Assembly (NCBI GenBank): GCA_960531495.1
Contig: OY482851.1
Coordinates: 23,243,533-23,307,532, forward strand
DNA: 64,000 bases
Source of the DNA: Zeus faber
Lineage: Eukaryota > Chordata > Actinopteri > Zeiformes > Zeidae
Reading direction: 5' to 3'
In this document: positions 2,212-62,542 of the stretch, one piece after another
How the letters are laid out: every line of letters begins with the position of its first letter
How positions within the stretch are numbered: position 1 is the first letter of the stretch
Program-made: the position numbers and the translations under genes
The notes under the pieces: generated by a model
What the model was told of the DNA's origin: nothing
What the model saw: only the letters and a program-made list of their open reading frames with translations
The model's database searches: none

Positions 2212-2480
2212 TTGTCGATGAAGACGATCATCTTTCGCAATGTTGTTTCCCTCCCCCCCATTATTACCAGACACAAATAACCAAGCTTTTAATTATTGAA
2301 CGTGAGCAAAACAAGTGACTGTTTTTCGCCGGCGAGGAGAAGCCTAAAACGCAAACTTGAGTATAATCTGTCTTTGAAAAGCTCAGTGGGTTGCCACTAG
2401 ATACACTTTGAGAGGCGATAAACAGCACTTTGTGACCCCATGCAGAGAAGCCCTGGGCTGAGATGGAGGCGTGTACAGTA

Positions 2481-2488
2481 TATAAAAA
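2481..2488 (+). promoter_or_regulatory. gnrh1: gnrh1 TATA box
   Basis: TATAAAAA lies about 30 bp upstream of a short untranslated first exon (about 2510-2559) that ends at a GTAAGAAT donor (2560). Teleost gnrh1 genes normally have a TATA box and a non-coding first exon, so the promoter layout is preserved although the coding part is damaged. Confidence 0.6.
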
Positions 2489-2635
2489 GCCTCTAAAAAC
2501 CAAGCGCAGCCACATTCACACAGCAGCTCGGATGAGAGCAGATCTGAGAAGCCACGAAAGTAAGAATGTGTACGATTTTTATGATGAGCGTGGTCCTATT
2601 TGGCTCACTGACGCGCACACCGCTTTGGTTTTCAG

Positions 2636-3190
2636 AAGGGACAGGAACTGCTTTGTCGTGTGTCTGCTGCTTTTGGGGACTTTTGCGGCGCAGGTCTGTG
2701 GTCAGCACTGGTCCTACGGCCTGAGCCCCCGGGGGAAAGAGGCAGCTGGAGCTGGAGCCACTCTCCCAACCTCTGGACGATGTAAGAAGCCACTGGTCCT
2801 CCTCTTTATTTGATCCCTCACCCTCTACTAATACACACTTTTACCATATGAAGTTTATTCCAGCAGATAGTAAAGCAAGCCGGGAAAATAGAGACGCCCG
2901 GTCGTGTTCTGGGCTGCACCAAAGGCTCGCCTACGCCAAACATTACAAGATGAGGGTGCTACTGGTAATTATTATTATTATTATGGTAATTCTGTGTTAA
3001 GTTCACTGTGTGCTCAAATGTGATGGTTTTTCATTGTCATTCTTAAATTGTGCAGTTGCTCATTATTAACATTATTATGTATAATCATTTGGTACAATTG
3101 AAATTGTCTTATTTGAATTGTTAAATTCTCTTTTAGGGCAGCGTCATCGCCAGAGAAAAGGAACACAACGTATTAGGAAACGGTTGCTAA
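2636..3190 (+). pseudogene. gnrh1: gonadotropin-releasing hormone 1 precursor, damaged
   Basis: The four-exon gnrh1 layout is visible. Exon 1 is untranslated, exon 2 is 2636-2781, exon 3 is 2864-2964 and exon 4 is 3137-3190 with TAA at 3188. Exon 2 has a hydrophobic signal peptide (FVVCLLLLGTFAAQVCG) followed by QHWSYGLSP, the start of the seabream/mammal-type GnRH decapeptide. Three lesions are seen. No ATG occurs in exon 2; AGG stands where a start would be expected (2637-2639). One extra C or G in the CCCCCGGGGG run (2726-2735) turns the expected P-G-G-K-R into P-R-G-K-E, removing both the amidation glycine and the dibasic site. In exon 3 the GAP residues QIVKQAGKIETPGRVLGC are in the corrected frame but LAYAKHYKMRVLL is one base off, so 1 nt is missing near 2920-2930. 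The two indels cancel, leaving an open frame to the native stop. GnRH1 normally drives pituitary gonadotropin release. An assembly error at the homopolymer is the main alternative for the first indel. Confidence 0.8.
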
Positions 3191-3199
3191 GTCCCCCAA

Positions 3200-3205
3200 A
3201 ATAAA
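3200..3205 (+). terminator. gnrh1: gnrh1 poly(A) signal
   Basis: AATAAA ten bases after the stop codon of gnrh1 exon 4. Teleost gnrh1 has a short 3' UTR, so the position is natural. Confidence 0.6.
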
Positions 3206-8460: not shown

Positions 8461-9558
8461 TTAGGAATTCACACTAATAGATCCTTTGCTCAATATTGAC
8501 CCTTTGGTGACCTCTGTGCTCACCACGGAGAGCGGGAAGCTCTCGTACCTCTCCACTGTCCCCCAGCAGTGACAGCGCAGAAGAGTGGCCTTGAGCTGCT
8601 TCTGGAAGTTGTTGTTCAGGAAGCCGTATATGATGGGATTGACACACGTGGAGGCCATGGCTGTGAGGTGGCAGACGGAGAAGATGGCGTCGTGCTGGCA
8701 GGAGGGGATGACCTCGTGGTTCCAGTCGAACACGGTGTTGAAGACGTTGAGCGGGAGCCAGCAGAGGGCAAACACGGCCACGATGGAGCCCAACATGGCG
8801 TTGATCCTCTTTGAACCCTTGGTCTTGTTGTCTCTGGAGTCCCTCGCCCGGTCCACCATATCCCTCCTCCTCTGCAGGCGCAGGAAGATGCGCAGGTAGC
8901 AGACCAAGATGAGGACCAGCGGGAAGAAGTACTGAAAGACCAGCAGCGAGGTGGTGTAGGCCAGCCGGTTGCCATCAGACGGCCAGCGCTCCATGCAGAC
9001 CAAGTGGTCGCTGAAGGGGAAAGGGACAGTCATGTTGTGGAAAGGCAGGTTAGTGAGGACGCTGAAGGAGAGGAAGGGCAGAGACATCAAGCAGGCCACC
9101 ACCCAGGTGACACCCACCGCCAGGTAGGACTGGCTCACCATGGGCTTCCACCCCGTCGGGTGGATGATGAGCTGGTAGCGCTCCAATGCAATAAGGACCA
9201 GGGAGAAGATGGAGACGGTCACCGAAACACACTGCACAAAGGGGGTGATCTTACAGAGCGCTTCTCCCAAGATCCAGTGGTCCATCAAGGTGTAGATGAT
9301 AGTGACGGGCAGACACACGATGCACATGAGGATGTCGGAGCAGGAGAGGTTGGCGATGAAGATGTTGGTGACGTTGCGCATCTCCTTCTGCCGCACAATG
9401 ACGAACACAAGGGAGGCATTGCCAATGACCCCCACAGCGATCAATGCGCTGTAGGCGACGATGAGGAAGGTGGTGCCACTCACCGAGGGTTGGCACATCT
9501 CTGACGTGAAGTCCCATGTTAACTCCTCACTGTGGTTGATTTTGCGGTGGAACTCCAT
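8461..9558 (-). CDS. npy8r: neuropeptide Y receptor, Y1/Y4/Y8 group (probably Y8)
   Basis: A 365-residue class A GPCR encoded by one exon. Seven hydrophobic segments are visible. The N-terminus carries a sequon (NHS). TM1 has GNASL, TM2 has LSCSD, the conserved TM3-ECL2 cysteines are in ALCKI and LVCME, TM3 ends in ERY, TM6 has [12 protein letters not shown] and TM7 ends [13 protein letters not shown] pair suitable for palmitoylation lies in the tail, which ends with a [13 protein letters not shown] stretch typical of the Y1 subfamily. Such receptors bind NPY, PYY or PP and couple to Gi at the plasma membrane. I chose the ATG at 9558 because the frame extends upstream only to a GTG. Assignment to Y8 and not Y4 rests on the neighbourhood: kctd9/gnrh1 is a human-8p21-type block and Y8 is the receptor expected there. 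The a/b copy cannot be told. Confidence 0.85.
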
Positions 9559-9698
9559 GATCCCTTTGCTGGGTATTATTTCATAGGCTGCGATCTCGAT
9601 GTCCTGCACTTATTATTTCTTATGAACGTTGGCGTTCATCACAGGTTTTCATCATCTCTAATTGGGGCAGTTGTTATTGAAGTCTTCCATTTTTCTGC
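9559..9698 (-). other. npy8r: npy8r 5' UTR with three upstream ORFs
   Basis: A 3' splice site (TTCTTTCAG) reads into 9698 on the minus strand, so 9698-9559 is probably the leader part of the coding exon. It holds three short upstream ORFs, each closed before the main ATG: 9690-9658 (10 codons plus stop), 9655-9620 (11 codons plus stop) and 9639-9613 (8 codons plus stop). Such a leader would be expected to lower translation of the receptor. Confidence 0.5.
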
Positions 9699-20259: not shown

Positions 20260-20661
20260 CCCGCAGTCGGACAGCAGAAAGTAAACAGCGTTGTTTTGAT
20301 TTGCAGCTCCTCGGGCTCTGCGCCCTGGCCTGGGCTGATCCGGAGGGATCTGCCAGACACACTGCCACAACAGCCTGTGTAAGTCGTGCACTCACCGTTG
20401 GGCGATGTGTTAAATGTATTTCGTCGAGATCTGAGATGTTTGCGTGTTTTCACTTTCTTTTTAGCCACTTCCTACTTTGGGCTAGTTGAGTTAGCTCACC
20501 CTCTAGGATAAGCAACGCTGACCTTCGCAGCTAAATATAAGGCAATGTATAATCCATTTGGTGTTTGATTTAGTTACAGCCACATCATATTGATGACCAT
20601 CAAGATGGCGAGATTCAGTCAGACACAGAAACCTTAAAGCCACGACCCAGAAGGATTCACC

Positions 20662-21880
20662 ATGGCCGGTCCCATGCTGGGACCTGCTGGCTCGTTGGAC
20701 CGCCATAATGGCCGGACCTACCGGAGCTCTGGCCACTTCGGGAGCCTGATGAGCCGCCTGGACTCCCTGAGGCACGGTGGCATCCTGTTCGACGTGGTGC
20801 TGCTAGTGGACGGCCGTCCTCTCCGGGCTCATCGCATCCTCCTGGCAGCCTCCTGCGACTACTTCAGGTGAAGGCTCTCTTCTCACCTGACCCTCCTCGC
20901 TTTTGAACCCACGGCGGGGGCTTCGTTGACCTTCCTTTTCATTCAGTGCAACAGCGTTTCTGTTTCTTGTTGTAGGGGGATGTTTGCCGGAGGGCTTCGG
21001 GAGACCCAGCAGACAGAAATACCTGTGCACGGTGTGACCCACACGGCCATGACCAAACTGCTTGACTTCATCTACACGTCAGAGATCGAGTTAGATATTG
21101 ACCACGTGCAGGAGGTCCTGGCTGCTGCCACTCTGTTGCAGGTAGGTCGCTCTCCCCCCTTCTTACACTTGCTTCAGGCAGGCTGCGCTCACATCACAGA
21201 TAGACCGAACCCTTGCTTGTCCTTCACAGGTTGACGACGTTATCAGCTTCTGCTGTGACTTCCTCTTCTCCTGGATGGATGACAAAAACATTTTGGAGGT
21301 GCACAGGCTGGCTGACATGTTTGGGCTGCAGCAGCTGGAGGCCAATGTTCACTCCTACATCCTCAGAAACATCCAGACTCTGTCCAGGACCGACGTCTAC
21401 CGCCAGCTCCCTCCGGACAGAGTCTTCCGTGTGCTGTGCAGCGACGAGCTCGAGGTGAACAGCGAGAACGAGGTGTACGAAGCCGCCCTCCACTACCACT
21501 ACAGCCCTGAGCAGGTGGAGACGGACCAGGTGTGCTTGCAGGTAATACTCCCGACTCATGCTCCATTCACTTGGAAAGCAGGTGTCTGCTCATACCTCTC
21601 AGGGTAAAGGAGAGTCAATTTAGAAGAGATGTAATTGCGTCTGCTCGTAATAGAGCCCATTTGTATTTTGCCGTGAACAGACTCAGTCATTTTAGGGGAG
21701 CTGAGGTTTTGAAGGTATCTTTTTCCAGAGATATGCTTTTTCCTGTAATGCTGCAATTTTCAACTCCATTTAGACTCATCAAAGAACCAAAAAGCTGAAT
21801 GCAGTACAAAAATACAAAGTGAAAGGGTGATGTCTGCTCTGTTATCATGGCACCAAGTCTAAAAATGACTGATTCGTTTT

Positions 21881-21921
<41 letters not shown>

Positions 21922-24587
21922 GATAACCTGAAGATGCTGAAAGCTGTGCGTTTCTGCCTGATGGAGAAGCATGTGCTGCAAAGGCTCTACGGGAGGCTGA
22001 ACCAGTGCCCACTGAAGGAGTCCGTGGCTGCGGCGCTGCGCTACCATGAGCAGGAGATCTGGCAACCCGTCCTGCAGGGCCCGCTCACCCAGCCCCGTTC
22101 CAAGTGCCACTGCATCCTGGGCTTCGGAGGCATGTTCACCTCCGGCTCACACTCGGACAACGAGGATTCGTTCCAGGTGTTCCAGGTGTTCCACCCCAAA
22201 TGGGGTGAGTGGAGGACCCTCAGTGCGGCCCAGTCACCCCACATGTCCAACCAGGGCATCGCCGTGCTCAATAACTTCATCTATCTGATCGGAGGTGACA
22301 AAAATGACAGCGGCTTTCGTGCAGAGACCCGCTGCTGGAGGTGAGATCCCACAACGTCAGTTGCCTTTCAGCTCAGTTTGAATAAAGCACCCCAAACCAA
22401 AATTTGGTGTGATCCCATTGTGTCACATTTACTGTTACATTAAGTCATTTAGCCTTTATCCAAAGTGACATCCACTGGCTGCATTTGTAAGTAGTAGTTG
22501 AAGTGACTGTACATGACAGTCATTGTCAGCAAAGCCTTAAATAACTTATAAGATATTGCCTTCCCCGGACACAATAGTAACCTGTGGGGGTCAAGACAGG
22601 TTTATTCATATAGGCCTTAAATAGGTCTTATATAACCAGCACAGTCTCAAATGGCTTCATAAGCTTCACATTTCACATGGGAGTCAACGGCATCCCCTGG
22701 TCCCTGATGGAAAAACGCTTTTGGGGAAGAACAGACCTTGGCCAGACTGCATTTTATGAGCATGATATGACATTATTAATAGTGTAAGATACTAACTCAT
22801 ATGCTACGTATTAGGACATATACTATACAATATGCATGTTATTGTTGAACAAATGCTATGCCCTAATAAATTAATTATGGCTGATTTTTTTCTTAATATA
22901 ATAAACATTCAGTGGAGTATATTACATTTCTCATACAAAATGGTGTTTTGCAGCAATGAAAAGGTCTGAGGATAGAATTTTCTCTGACTCTGAACCAACA
23001 CGATTGACATTTTATTGCAAAAAGGTGATCCTACCAGACCGCTTTGAACCTTAGAACGGTGTGCCCCTCACAGATATGACCCTCGACACAACAGCTGGTG
23101 CAGAATCAAGTCCCTGCAGCAGCAGCACGCCGACCACTGTGTGTGCGTGGTGGGCGGCCACATCTACGCCATCGGCGGGCGCGACTACAGCAACGAACTG
23201 GACTCGGTGGAGTGCTACGACCCGCACACCAACACCTGGGAGTACGTGGCTGCTCTCAAGAGAGAGGTGAGACTTTGGAAATGTGGACAGGCGTGGGGCA
23301 GGGTCGCCGGCCATACACAGCGAACTGTGAAGTCGATTGGATGAACTGTTGTTGAGATAATCAAAGGACAGACAGACAGTTTTCTAGAATAGATATATAT
23401 ATAAGTATACCATACATTTTTTAAATTCATAATTATTATTAATTAATTAAAATTAATTCATAATCCCATATTAAAAGATGCAATTGAGGTTCATCACATT
23501 GACCTCTATGGCATTGATACCTGACCAAAAGTAGAGTTTTATTTTTTTTTTGTTTTGGTTTTTTATATTAAATGATATATTTAGAATTTGATATTGGGAG
23601 AGATTTTAGGTAATATCTTCTTCTCAAGATAAGTTAAGATCAGATATGTTCAGACTACAAGATTGTATGTCCCAAAATTTATTATATAATCAGATAATTG
23701 CCCAGCCCTACCCCAGTGGAAAAACTAGCCTTATTTTTGGTAAAGGAAAGCAGTACTCCAAAGATTCACATGGGGGCCCTATAATCCCACTGAGGGGATG
23801 CGCTCCACCTCATCAGGTGCCATGCTCCTCTCTGCTAAACCTCTCACCCACGATTTCCCTGACCTAGTCTAGCCTCTCCCCTATAGGTGTACGCCCACGC
23901 CGGAGCGGTGGTGGACGGGAAGGTCTTCATCACGTGCGGTCGTCGAGGGTCGGTGTACCTGAAGGAAACCTACTGCTTTGACCCTGCCGCCAACCAGTGG
24001 GCGGCATGCGCAGAGGGCCCCGTGGCGCGGGCGTGGCACGGCATGGCCTCCGTGCACGGACGCGTCTACGTCATTGGCGGTAGCCACGGCGAGCAAGGGC
24101 ATCGACACGACGTCCTTAAGGTATTCCTTACTGTACCTGCTGAGGATATTGATTCTGAGGAGCGTATGGTAAACACTGAGGTGATGCAGAGGTGGGGAGT
24201 TCCAGGCCCAGGGAGTTAAAGTGCCACCATTTTTCTTTTTTCCAGGTGGCGTGTTTGGACCCAGAGACTGACTCCTGGTCCCTGGTGAGCCCCCTCCCGG
24301 CTGGACACGGAGAGCCCGGCGTGGCGGTGCTGGACGATCGCATCTACATCCTGGGAGGGCGCTCGCACGACAAAGACAGCCGGATGAGGTACGTCCACAT
24401 GTACGACGCCAAGGCGGACGACTGGCAGACGGCGGCGCCCTTCAGAGGCCGCATCTCGGGCCTGGCTGCCTGCGTGGTGCCCCTGCCCCCCTCTGTGGTC
24501 AGCCAGGCCAAGAGCTGGGAGCTGTACAACAAGGCCTCGTGGGAAGAGATGAACATGGAAAACTCGGAGTACTCCAGTGAGGACTGA
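20662..24587 (+). CDS. klhl22: Kelch-like protein 22, CUL3 adaptor
   Basis: Seven coding exons with GT-AG introns and consistent phases: 20662-20867, 20976-21141, 21230-21541, 21922-22340, 23074-23266, 23887-24120 and 24246-24587. They encode 623 residues (human KLHL22 is about 634). Order of domains: BTB/POZ (about 40-150, LFDVVLLVDGRPLRAHRILLA), BACK (about 155-270) and six Kelch repeats (about 300-600) with repeated GG-Y/I-x-G and W motifs (YLIGG, YAIGG, YVIGG, YILGG). The C-terminus ends in a Ser-Ser-Glu-Asp motif, as in the family. KLHL22 is a substrate receptor of CUL3-RBX1 ubiquitin ligase. Known mammalian targets are DEPDC5, whose loss activates mTORC1, and PLK1 at kinetochores. The ATG at 20662 has a good context (CACCATGG). 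The intron-3 acceptor is built from a CT microsatellite. Confidence 0.95.
21884..21921 (+). repeat. klhl22: (CT)18 tract forming the klhl22 intron 3 acceptor
   Basis: About 18 CT units run directly into the AG at 21920-21921, so the microsatellite is itself the polypyrimidine tract of the 3' splice site of the exon starting at 21922. Confidence 0.9.
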
Positions 24588-33264: not shown

Positions 33265-34320
33265 TAGGATAAAAGATGTGAGATAAAATAACATGAAAGG
33301 TATAATAGTTACCTTTTGGTACTGGTCCCCTCATCCCGGAAACCTTTTGCGAATGGATTGTGGTCGATCTTCAGCTTTGTCACCTGGGAAAAGGGTGCGG
33401 CAGAATAACAATCACAATTCCATTACTCCCCAGTAGAAAACTACAGACATTGTTTGAAAGAAAAGGGAATTGTGATTTTCTCCCACCGGTTAAAAAAAAA
33501 AAAAAAAGAAAAACGAGCCTGACCTTGGCGTTCTGGTAGGCGGTGACTGCGGTGAAGGAGGTCTCTGGGAAGGTGAAGGTCTGGAAGACGCTCCAGCGAA
33601 CGCTGAACAGGTCGTCCGCCTGGATGATGTGGAAGCGTGGATGGTAGTGATGCATGGAATGCAGAATGATCTGGAGAGAGAAAATAATGGGTTTTATTCA
33701 TCGTATTTGTTGCCTTGGTACTTTGTATGACACTTCTGTTCCATTATTAATGTACATTCAGGATATATAAATCCTGTATGTATAAACACAAACATCAGAT
33801 AAACATATGGTGAATTATGCGGTTTCTAAAGTTTTTATTTTTAGTCACCCACTAAACTTTCAAACTATATTGCTGAGCAAAAAGTGCCCCCCTCGACATA
33901 CATGTCCGTGTTGGTCCAGGGTGTTGTTGGTGAGCTTGAGCTTGAGGAAGGAGACGGACTGCTTCATCCAGTGGCACCCCGGGGCTGGAGAGTCTGGGTG
34001 GAGGTAGGTCCTGCAGGGTGGCTGGGGCTCCGCTTTTCCCGCCACCTCCCATTTCTCTTTATTCCACTGGAAGGAGACAAAAAGATAGCCGGCGTGCCAT
34101 TAGCCCTCGTCTGTCGCGCAAGGGTGATTTACAGGAGTACCGTCTTCCCTTCCCACCGTGCTAAGAGAGTGGCGTGATGCTTCGGCCGGCGACCACCCGC
34201 TGGGGCGCCGCCCGAGTACAGTGGGGCCCCAGCAGGGGATAGAAAAACAGGAAGAGATAACAGCCTTTGATGTGCGATGTCAGGGGAGGGAAGGAGGGAG
34301 GGGTGGAGGGGTGGGTGGGT

Positions 34321-34354
<34 letters not shown>

Positions 34355-35100
34355 TGTGGGTGGGGGTGTAAACAGGGGTAGGGGATGCATCGTGTCTGGG
34401 GATATCTGGCACCAAGGCCATGGTCATTTGATAGAAGTGAGAACACAAACCAAGTCTGCGGTTTGGACTCGACACAGTGCCACGGGCCGGATTGATTTTG
34501 ATAAATAGAAGGATAAATGGTTCTAATTCTCACCTTATACCTGAAGCCATCCTCAGGGACCATGTCCACCAACAATATGTACTTGGCGCAGGGAATCAGG
34601 CCCGAGAGGTTGATCTTGCAGTGTGGAAACATTCGCCTGAAAAATACAGACCCCCAAAAAAATAAATAAATAAATAAAAGCCCCAATATCAACCTAAATG
34701 ACCATCATTCACAAGTTACTTGGAAAAGTCTCAAGAGCGTTTGTGCGTTTTGCCTGCGCTGGAGAAACATCTCATCTTCCACCTCCGTTCGACTGACCTG
34801 CCCGGCTTGGTGATGATCATCTCCGTTCCTATTTCGTGAAATGACTTCCAGAGGTCGGGATCCTCCAGCGTCATCCTGATGCTGCCCTGCAGGTAGGCAT
34901 CGGGGCCGCCCGCCATGGAGGACGGAGGGGCAGCGCTGAAGTTGGGCTTCAAGTCTAGCAGCACAGGACACGAGTAGGAGACAAATTTGATCGAACGATC
35001 GATTGTAAAAAAGAAGCGGGTAGACTTCCACAAAAGATCAAGACATTAAAAGTTCTGCAGAAGGTCCCACTGGGGATTACGTACCTCTGATGGACTGCAT
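32218..35100 (-). CDS. tbx16: T-box transcription factor Tbx16 (spadetail/VegT group)
   Basis: Nine coding exons on the minus strand, in transcript order: 35100-35085, 34954-34798, 34636-34534, 34066-33902, 33670-33524, 33383-33313, 33174-33086, 32998-32785 and 32665-32218. They encode 469 residues. Phases agree at every junction. The protein starts MQSIRDLKPNF. The T-box (about residues 38-218) runs from [19 protein letters not shown] through [35 protein letters not shown] and [19 protein letters not shown] to [17 protein letters not shown] basic/acidic linker and a Pro/His/Tyr-rich tail ending SYSCW follow. In zebrafish Tbx16 is a nuclear activator needed for paraxial mesoderm formation and acts with Tbxta and Tbx6l. 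Choosing tbx16 over tbx6l rests on the MQ-x-IRDLK start. The AAT microsatellite at 33225-33264 (intron 6) and the GT repeat at 34323-34353 (intron 3) are noncoding. Confidence 0.93.
33225..33264. repeat. (AAT)n microsatellite in tbx16 intron 6
   Basis: About 40 bp of AAT repeats between coding exons 6 and 7. Confidence 0.95.
34323..34353. repeat. (GT)n microsatellite in tbx16 intron 3
   Basis: A GT repeat of about 31 bp, preceded by GGGTGG repeats. Confidence 0.95.

Positions 35101-41287: not shown

Positions 41288-62542
<21,255 letters not shown>

What the first reader, a model, noticed from the sequence alone, without database searches (positions are those of the whole stretch)
2721..2964. 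gnrh1 carries two compensating frameshifts that destroy the hormone processing site
Seen: exon 2 reads QHWSYGLSP then R-G-K-E, where one base fewer in the C5G5 run gives G-G-K-R followed by a plausible GAP (QLELEPLSQPLDD). Exon 3 continues that corrected frame to VLGC and then needs one more base to reach LAYAKHYKMRVLL and exon 4. The +1 and -1 cancel, so the genomic frame stays open to the native stop with about 65 foreign codons between. Known: GnRH needs Gly-10 amidation and a dibasic cleavage site. Inference: no normal GnRH1 peptide can be made. I recall reports of non-functional gnrh1 in cod, so the loss may be known, but the compensated pattern deserves a look.
Basis: partly seen in the sequence, partly recalled or inferred. 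Interest (0 to 1): 0.8.

Follow-up and report, generated by a model that had tools for sequence, protein, structure and literature searches.

The report
John Dory's broken GnRH1 hormone gene
The brain hormone gene gnrh1 of the John Dory fish carries two frame-breaking changes and seems to have lost its start codon, so it can hardly make the hormone; two sister hormone genes look whole, which adds another fish line to those known to have lost this gene.

Summary
gnrh1 (about 2479-3205, + strand) has an extra C in the C5G5 run at 2726-2735, turning Pro9-Gly10-Gly-Lys-Arg into Pro-Arg-Gly-Lys-Glu, and a one-base deficit near 2933. The shifted stretch is about 39-40 codons, not 65. The species is not cod: chromosome and mitogenome lengths identify Zeus faber (John Dory, Zeiformes), assembly fZeuFab8.1 (HiFi, QV 52.6), so two chance base errors are very unlikely. 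A decapeptide pattern finds three GnRH sites: broken gnrh1, plus gnrh2 and gnrh3 with open frames. Best explanation: a rather recent unitary pseudogene, its role most likely carried by gnrh3. gnrh1 loss is known in cod and other fishes; I found no report for Zeiformes in the open-access library searched. The 'compensation' is compatible with chance. Intact splice sites, TATA box, polyA signal and nine hormone codons suggest a loss much younger than the cod-dory split. Reads, expression, the other haplotype and related fishes were not examined.

The parts
2479..2487 (+). TATA box (TATATAAAA) of gnrh1, intact
2532..2559 (+). 3' part of exon 1, with the only ATG of the spliced message between the TATA box and the hormone codons; out of frame with them; opens a 38-codon ORF that stops inside the decapeptide codons
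   Evidence: list of ATGs; corrected uORF; one search had cut exon 1 one base short
2560..2635 (+). intron 1 (GT-AG); if retained, ATG 2532 is in frame with the hormone
2636..2781 (+). exon 2: signal peptide without ATG, nine decapeptide codons, shifted processing site and start of GAP
2637..2639 (+). AGG at residue -22 from Gln1, where the start codon of a 22-residue signal peptide is expected; no other in-frame ATG upstream in exon 2
   Evidence: compared by eye with this genome's gnrh2 and gnrh3, whose ATG lies 0 and 5 bases after the exon-2 acceptor
2703..2729 (+). codons for QHWSYGLSP (GnRH residues 1-9), unchanged from seabream-type GnRH (QHWSYGLSPG)
   Evidence: seabream GnRH sequence printed in PMC6283897
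2726..2735 (+). C5G5 run with one extra C: +1 frameshift between codons 9 and 10; Gly10 and Lys-Arg go out of frame
   Evidence: Pfam GnRH 18.0 bits, profile 1-9 of 10
2782..2863 (+). intron 2 (GT-AG; a second CAG acceptor ends at 2866)
2864..2964 (+). exon 3, rest of GAP; TPG where the two recalled fish precursors have a Cys (recalled comparison)
2932..2934 (+). one-base deficit (-1), best placed after SP in SP-x-AK; returns the reading to the first frame
   Evidence: the exact place depends on recalled homologues (the other precursor puts it at 2942-2943)
2965..3136 (+). intron 3 (GT-AG)
3137..3190 (+). exon 4 coding part, GSVIAREKEHNVLGNGC-stop
3200..3205 (+). polyA signal AATAAA

Best explanation
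This is the gnrh1 orthologue of the John Dory, decayed into a unitary pseudogene. Shown in the assembly: one base too many between codons 9 and 10, one base too few in exon 3, and no in-frame ATG in exon 2. Inferred: no amidated GnRH1 decapeptide is made; the order of the lesions is unknown, and any later ones were free to occur once the gene was useless; the GnRH drive on the pituitary is carried by gnrh3, as reported for cod and zebrafish. Also inferred: the loss is young compared with the Zeiformes-Gadiformes split, hence independent of the loss in cod.
For: Frames and lesions. Controls in the same genome: gnrh3 has a complete 90-codon open frame and its exon 2 scores 23.3 bits on Pfam GnRH over all 10 positions; gnrh2 exon 2 scores 21.5; gnrh1 exon 2 gets 18.0 over positions 1-9, below the 18.5 cut-off. 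gnrh2 exons 3 and 4 are open where I read them, junctions judged by eye. The decapeptide pattern, exact matches only, gives 3 sites in 803 Mb and none in the reversed control; the gnrh1 stretch itself matches only its own place. Species: contigs C5, C7, C16, C22 and the mitogenome have the published fZeuFab8.1 lengths. Base quality: QV 52.6 expects 0.004 errors in 760 bases, P of two or more 8.7e-6 if errors are even. Age: 3 hits against about 81 effective sites give 0.037 neutral changes per site (0.008-0.108) at an assumed 0.12 indels per substitution; 3 or fewer at 0.2 has P 7.9e-5. gnrh1 loss with gnrh3 as hypophysiotropic form in cod: PMC5943551.
Against: No reads, transcripts, second haplotype or second species were examined, so fixation and silence are unproven. 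Promoter, splice sites, polyA signal and nine hormone codons are intact, so the gene may still be transcribed. The two frameshifts compensate each other, which a reader could take for selection. The GAP piece on its own matched no Pfam family, so its homology rests on the two recalled precursors. The age estimate leans on a recalled indel ratio and recalled substitution rates, and on my choice of constrained sites. Placing the start-codon loss assumes the usual fish layout (ATG near the start of exon 2).
Confidence: 0.85

Rival explanations
1. The loss is polymorphic: this haplotype is null, while intact alleles still circulate in the John Dory.
For: The sequence is still close to working: nine decapeptide codons, all three introns' splice sites and the TATA box are intact. 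The assembly is of one haplotype.
Against: Three lesions on one haplotype fit an allele long free of constraint.
Confidence: 0.1
2. The loss is ancient and shared with Gadiformes (one loss in the common ancestor of cod and dory).
For: gnrh1 is a pseudogene in cod, and Zeus faber sits in Zeiogadaria (that gadiforms are inside this clade is recalled).
Against: Only 3 disabling hits where long neutral decay would give many more: P 7.9e-5 at 0.2 changes per site, 5.3e-11 at 0.4 (assumed indel ratio 0.12; 5.5e-4 at 0.2 with ratio 0.08).
Confidence: 0.08
3. The indels are assembly or read errors and the gene is whole.
For: One indel is in a C5G5 run, the kind of place where long reads err.
Against: 43-fold HiFi, QV 52.6; P of two errors 8.7e-6 if even; the second indel is not in a long homopolymer, and the missing ATG is a third lesion of another kind.
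Confidence: 0.02
4. The compensated frame is kept by selection and encodes a new secreted peptide.
For: The frame stays open from exon 2 to the exon-4 stop.
Against: No in-frame ATG in the spliced message; chance of an open stretch about 0.26.
Confidence: 0.02

Closest known systems
gnrh1 pseudogene of Atlantic cod (Hildahl et al. 2011, not read; cited in PMC5943551 and PMC10924128, passages read)
   Same: gnrh1 reported non-functional or lost; gnrh2 and gnrh3 kept; a related order
   Different: Another order (Zeiformes); the cod lesions could not be seen, so sharing is untested; the low lesion count here argues for an independent, younger loss
gnrh1 pseudogene homeolog of Atlantic salmon (PMC10700215, passages read)
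   Same: No start codon, and further mutations
   Different: In salmon one active gnrh1 remains in the genome; here the only gnrh1 found is broken
gnrh1 loss in cypriniforms and characids (PMC10924128, passages read)
   Same: gnrh3 remains; in zebrafish it is the hypophysiotropic form
   Different: There gnrh1 was not found; here it is almost complete, an early stage of decay

Membership tests
gnrh1 orthologue | Seabream-type decapeptide codons QHWSYGLSPG | tested here: inconclusive
   Residues 1-9 match, residue 10 is out of frame; Pfam 18.0 bits against a cut-off of 18.5, profile 1-9 of 10
gnrh1 orthologue | Four-exon gene with GT-AG introns, TATA box and polyA signal | tested here: met
gnrh1 orthologue | Distinct from gnrh2 and gnrh3 loci | tested here: met
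   Three pattern sites on C5, C7 and C16; those on C5 and C16 are gnrh2- and gnrh3-type
gnrh1 orthologue | Next to a KCTD9-like gene (synteny recalled) | tested here: inconclusive
   Pentapeptide-repeat exon near 519-635; the name KCTD9 is recalled
functional GnRH precursor | Gly10 plus Lys-Arg in frame with the decapeptide | tested here: not met
   reads RGKE
functional GnRH precursor | In-frame start codon and signal peptide | tested here: not met
   no in-frame ATG in exon 2; exon-1 ATG out of frame
unitary pseudogene | Two or more independent disabling lesions | tested here: met
unitary pseudogene | No working copy elsewhere in the genome | tested here: inconclusive
   The DNA matches only its own place and no other seabream-type site fits the pattern; but the pattern took exact matches with Tyr or His at residue 5 only, so a Phe5 form would be missed, and the alternate haplotype was not seen
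unitary pseudogene | Fixed in the species and not translated | not testable with these tools
   needs the alternate haplotype, more individuals, RNA-seq and peptides
gadiform gnrh1 pseudogene | Found in Gadiformes | tested here: not met
gadiform gnrh1 pseudogene | Same lesions as in cod | not testable with these tools
   no cod sequence at hand

The most novel reading that the evidence does not exclude
The ribosome slips by +1 on CCC-CGG at the C5G5 run, which would restore Gly10-Gly-Lys-Arg, and an intron-1-retaining message supplies the in-frame ATG at 2532, so that some GnRH1 is still made from a seemingly dead gene.
Probability: 0.01. Interest if true: 0.85.

Novelty: new member of a known kind. 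Interest (0 to 1): 0.4.

Why it matters
Which GnRH gene drives the pituitary has changed several times in fishes. PMC10924128 (passages read) holds that gnrh3 took over where gnrh1 was lost, and uses cod, a non-acanthopterygian, to date the later loss of the preoptic gnrh3 enhancer. A young, independent loss in the John Dory would be a second case from the cod side of the tree, caught early, and predicts preoptic gnrh3 expression in Zeiformes. It is useful to comparative endocrinologists but not a new kind of event.

Tried and rejected
Tandem-repeat content as a cod test: 3.6% of the window, not decisive; dropped. Relatives of gnrh1 in GTDB genomes and IMG/VR: 194 and 24 stretches matched a short pattern, none confirmed by tblastn. 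A third frameshift in exon 4: drawn by the aligner with both precursors, not supported by a separate score. A further frameshift drawn in the signal peptide with the cichlid precursor only (2654-2657) was taken as spurious: the other precursor does not show it and the region is poorly conserved. Exon-1 ATG as a rescue start: out of frame; one search had cut exon 1 one base short, so its uORF is wrong. Literature: all 10 searches used. The one paper holding both gnrh1 and Zeus faber is a heavy-metal review (listing only). (two of GnRH, Zeiformes, gene loss) matched 124 papers; the 15 listed hold Zeiformes zero times, the other 109 were not seen.

Full report
What is there. The window holds a near-complete gnrh1 gene on the + strand: TATA box at 2479, an exon 1 that ends at 2559, exon 2 at 2636-2781, exon 3 at 2864-2964, exon 4 from 3137 with its stop at 3188-3190, and AATAAA at 3200; all three introns are GT-AG.

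The lesions. In the frame of QHWSYGLSP the message goes on RGKEAAG..., while GGKRQLELEPLSQPLD lies in the next frame. The C5G5 run at 2726-2735 has one C more than a Pro9-Gly10 junction needs; one G fewer instead would leave Arg at position 10 (inspection). Exon 3 keeps the second frame to VLGCTKGSP, and the first frame then reads LAYAKHYKMRVLL. Scores with and without shifts are 160 vs 110 and 124 vs 67, and 137 and 101 at a penalty of 20 per shift; exons 2 and 3 alone give 140 vs 90; 30 shuffles of each precursor reach at most 16 and 19. As controls, this genome's own gnrh3 peptide gains little (66 vs 60, and nothing at penalties of 15 and 20), while gnrh2 exon 2 gains some (66 vs 50; 55 at penalty 20), which I take to be the first shift again. 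With the cichlid precursor the aligner also drew a shift in the signal peptide, which I take as spurious, and with both precursors one in exon 4, which a separate score does not support.

Upstream of Gln1, exon 2 reads RDRNCFVVCLLLLGTFAAQVCG with no Met; the codon at -22 is AGG. In this genome's own gnrh2 and gnrh3 the ATG lies 0 and 5 bases after the exon-2 acceptor, judged by eye. Between the TATA box and the C5G5 run there are four ATGs, at 2532, 2566, 2581 and 2584; the last three lie in intron 1. The one at 2532 in exon 1 is out of frame in the spliced message, and its 38-codon ORF stops within the decapeptide codons. Only a message that keeps intron 1 would have an in-frame ATG.

Which animal. 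The genome is held as G000, 803.5 Mb in 153 contigs, the window being C7:23243533-23307532. It has one MHC class II beta and one alpha match, both without stops, and its mitogenome has tRNA-Thr and tRNA-Pro side by side; both speak against a gadid (recalled hallmarks). Contig lengths C5 37.98, C7 36.10, C16 31.67, C22 25.41 Mb and a mitogenome of 16,722 bases equal chromosomes 5, 7, 16, 22 and MT of the Zeus faber assembly fZeuFab8.1 (PMC11179049, outline and passages read). The published total is 804.7 Mb in 190 scaffolds, so the held copy presumably lacks some small pieces. That assembly has 43-fold HiFi coverage and QV 52.6; 760 bases would hold 0.004 errors, P of two or more 8.7e-6 if errors are even. 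Errors cluster in homopolymers, so this is a guide, not proof.

The other GnRH genes. A degenerate decapeptide pattern, exact matches only, finds 3 sites and none in the reversed control: gnrh2-type on C5, this gene, and gnrh3-type on C16. The pattern allows Tyr or His at residue 5, so a Phe5 form would be missed; the gnrh1 DNA itself matches only its own place. gnrh3 has a complete open frame of 90 codons. gnrh2 exons 2, 3 and 4 are open where read, though its exon junctions were judged by eye. Pfam GnRH gives 23.3 bits (gnrh3 exon 2) and 21.5 (gnrh2 exon 2) over positions 1-10, and 18.0 for gnrh1 exon 2 over 1-9, under the 18.5 cut-off; the gnrh1 GAP piece on its own matched no family.

Is the compensation special? 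The shifted stretch is about 39-40 codons; with its base composition it is stop-free with probability 0.26. A second one-base indel has roughly an even chance of the opposite sign (my estimate), so a pair like this would arise in roughly one case in ten. No selection need be invoked.

How old? I counted places whose loss would disable the gene: 30.3 nonsynonymous sites in 13 hormone and processing codons, 12 splice bases, 3 start-codon bases, and 297 coding bases open to indels. Three hits (start, two indels) give 0.037 neutral changes per site (0.008-0.108) if there are 0.12 indels per substitution; ratios of 0.08 and 0.16 give 0.043 and 0.032; counting a third indel gives 0.049 at 0.12. At 0.2 changes per site, three or fewer hits have P 7.9e-5 (5.5e-4 with ratio 0.08). 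With recalled fish rates of 2-5e-9 per year this means of the order of ten million years, against roughly a hundred for the split from Gadiformes (recalled).

Known or new. That gnrh1 is a pseudogene in cod and gnrh3 its hypophysiotropic form is stated in PMC5943551, and that cod lost gnrh1 in PMC10924128, both citing Hildahl et al. 2011, which I did not read. Loss in cypriniforms and characids is in PMC10924128, and a salmon gnrh1 pseudogene without start codon in PMC10700215. I saw passages only of these, and of PMC5126056, PMC8927807, PMC3591744, PMC7750530 and PMC6283897, where the passages shown say nothing on gnrh1 in zeiforms. My searches found no paper on gnrh1 in Zeus faber or Zeiformes (of the 124 papers matched only 15 were listed); the library is open-access only. 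I file this as a new member of a known kind.

Limits. No reads, second haplotype, transcript or related fish was examined; the homologous precursors were recalled, so the exact place of the second indel and the lost Cys (TPG for a recalled PC) rest on memory. That the hormone is absent and that gnrh3 has its role are inferences.

Noticed in passing
8461-9609 (-): Single open frame of a neuropeptide Y receptor, closest among solved structures to NPY receptor type 1, then type 4.
   Followed up: partly
20638-24587 (+): Pieces of a multi-exon BTB-BACK-Kelch (KLHL-type) gene.
   Followed up: partly
33380-35045 (-): Two pieces of a T-box transcription factor; the best hits of one piece in solved structures are TBX3 and TBX5, and the member was not settled.
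   Followed up: partly
52588-54161 (-): Long open frames with no Pfam family over its cut-off; what they encode is not known.
   Followed up: no
2532-2781: If intron 1 is retained, one frame is open from ATG 2532 to the exon-4 stop (135 codons with the stop), with a long extension before the signal-peptide remnant.
   Followed up: partly
1719-1867, 42174-42309, 46692-46824: Long GT/CA microsatellites; tandem repeats make up 3.6% of the window.
   Followed up: no
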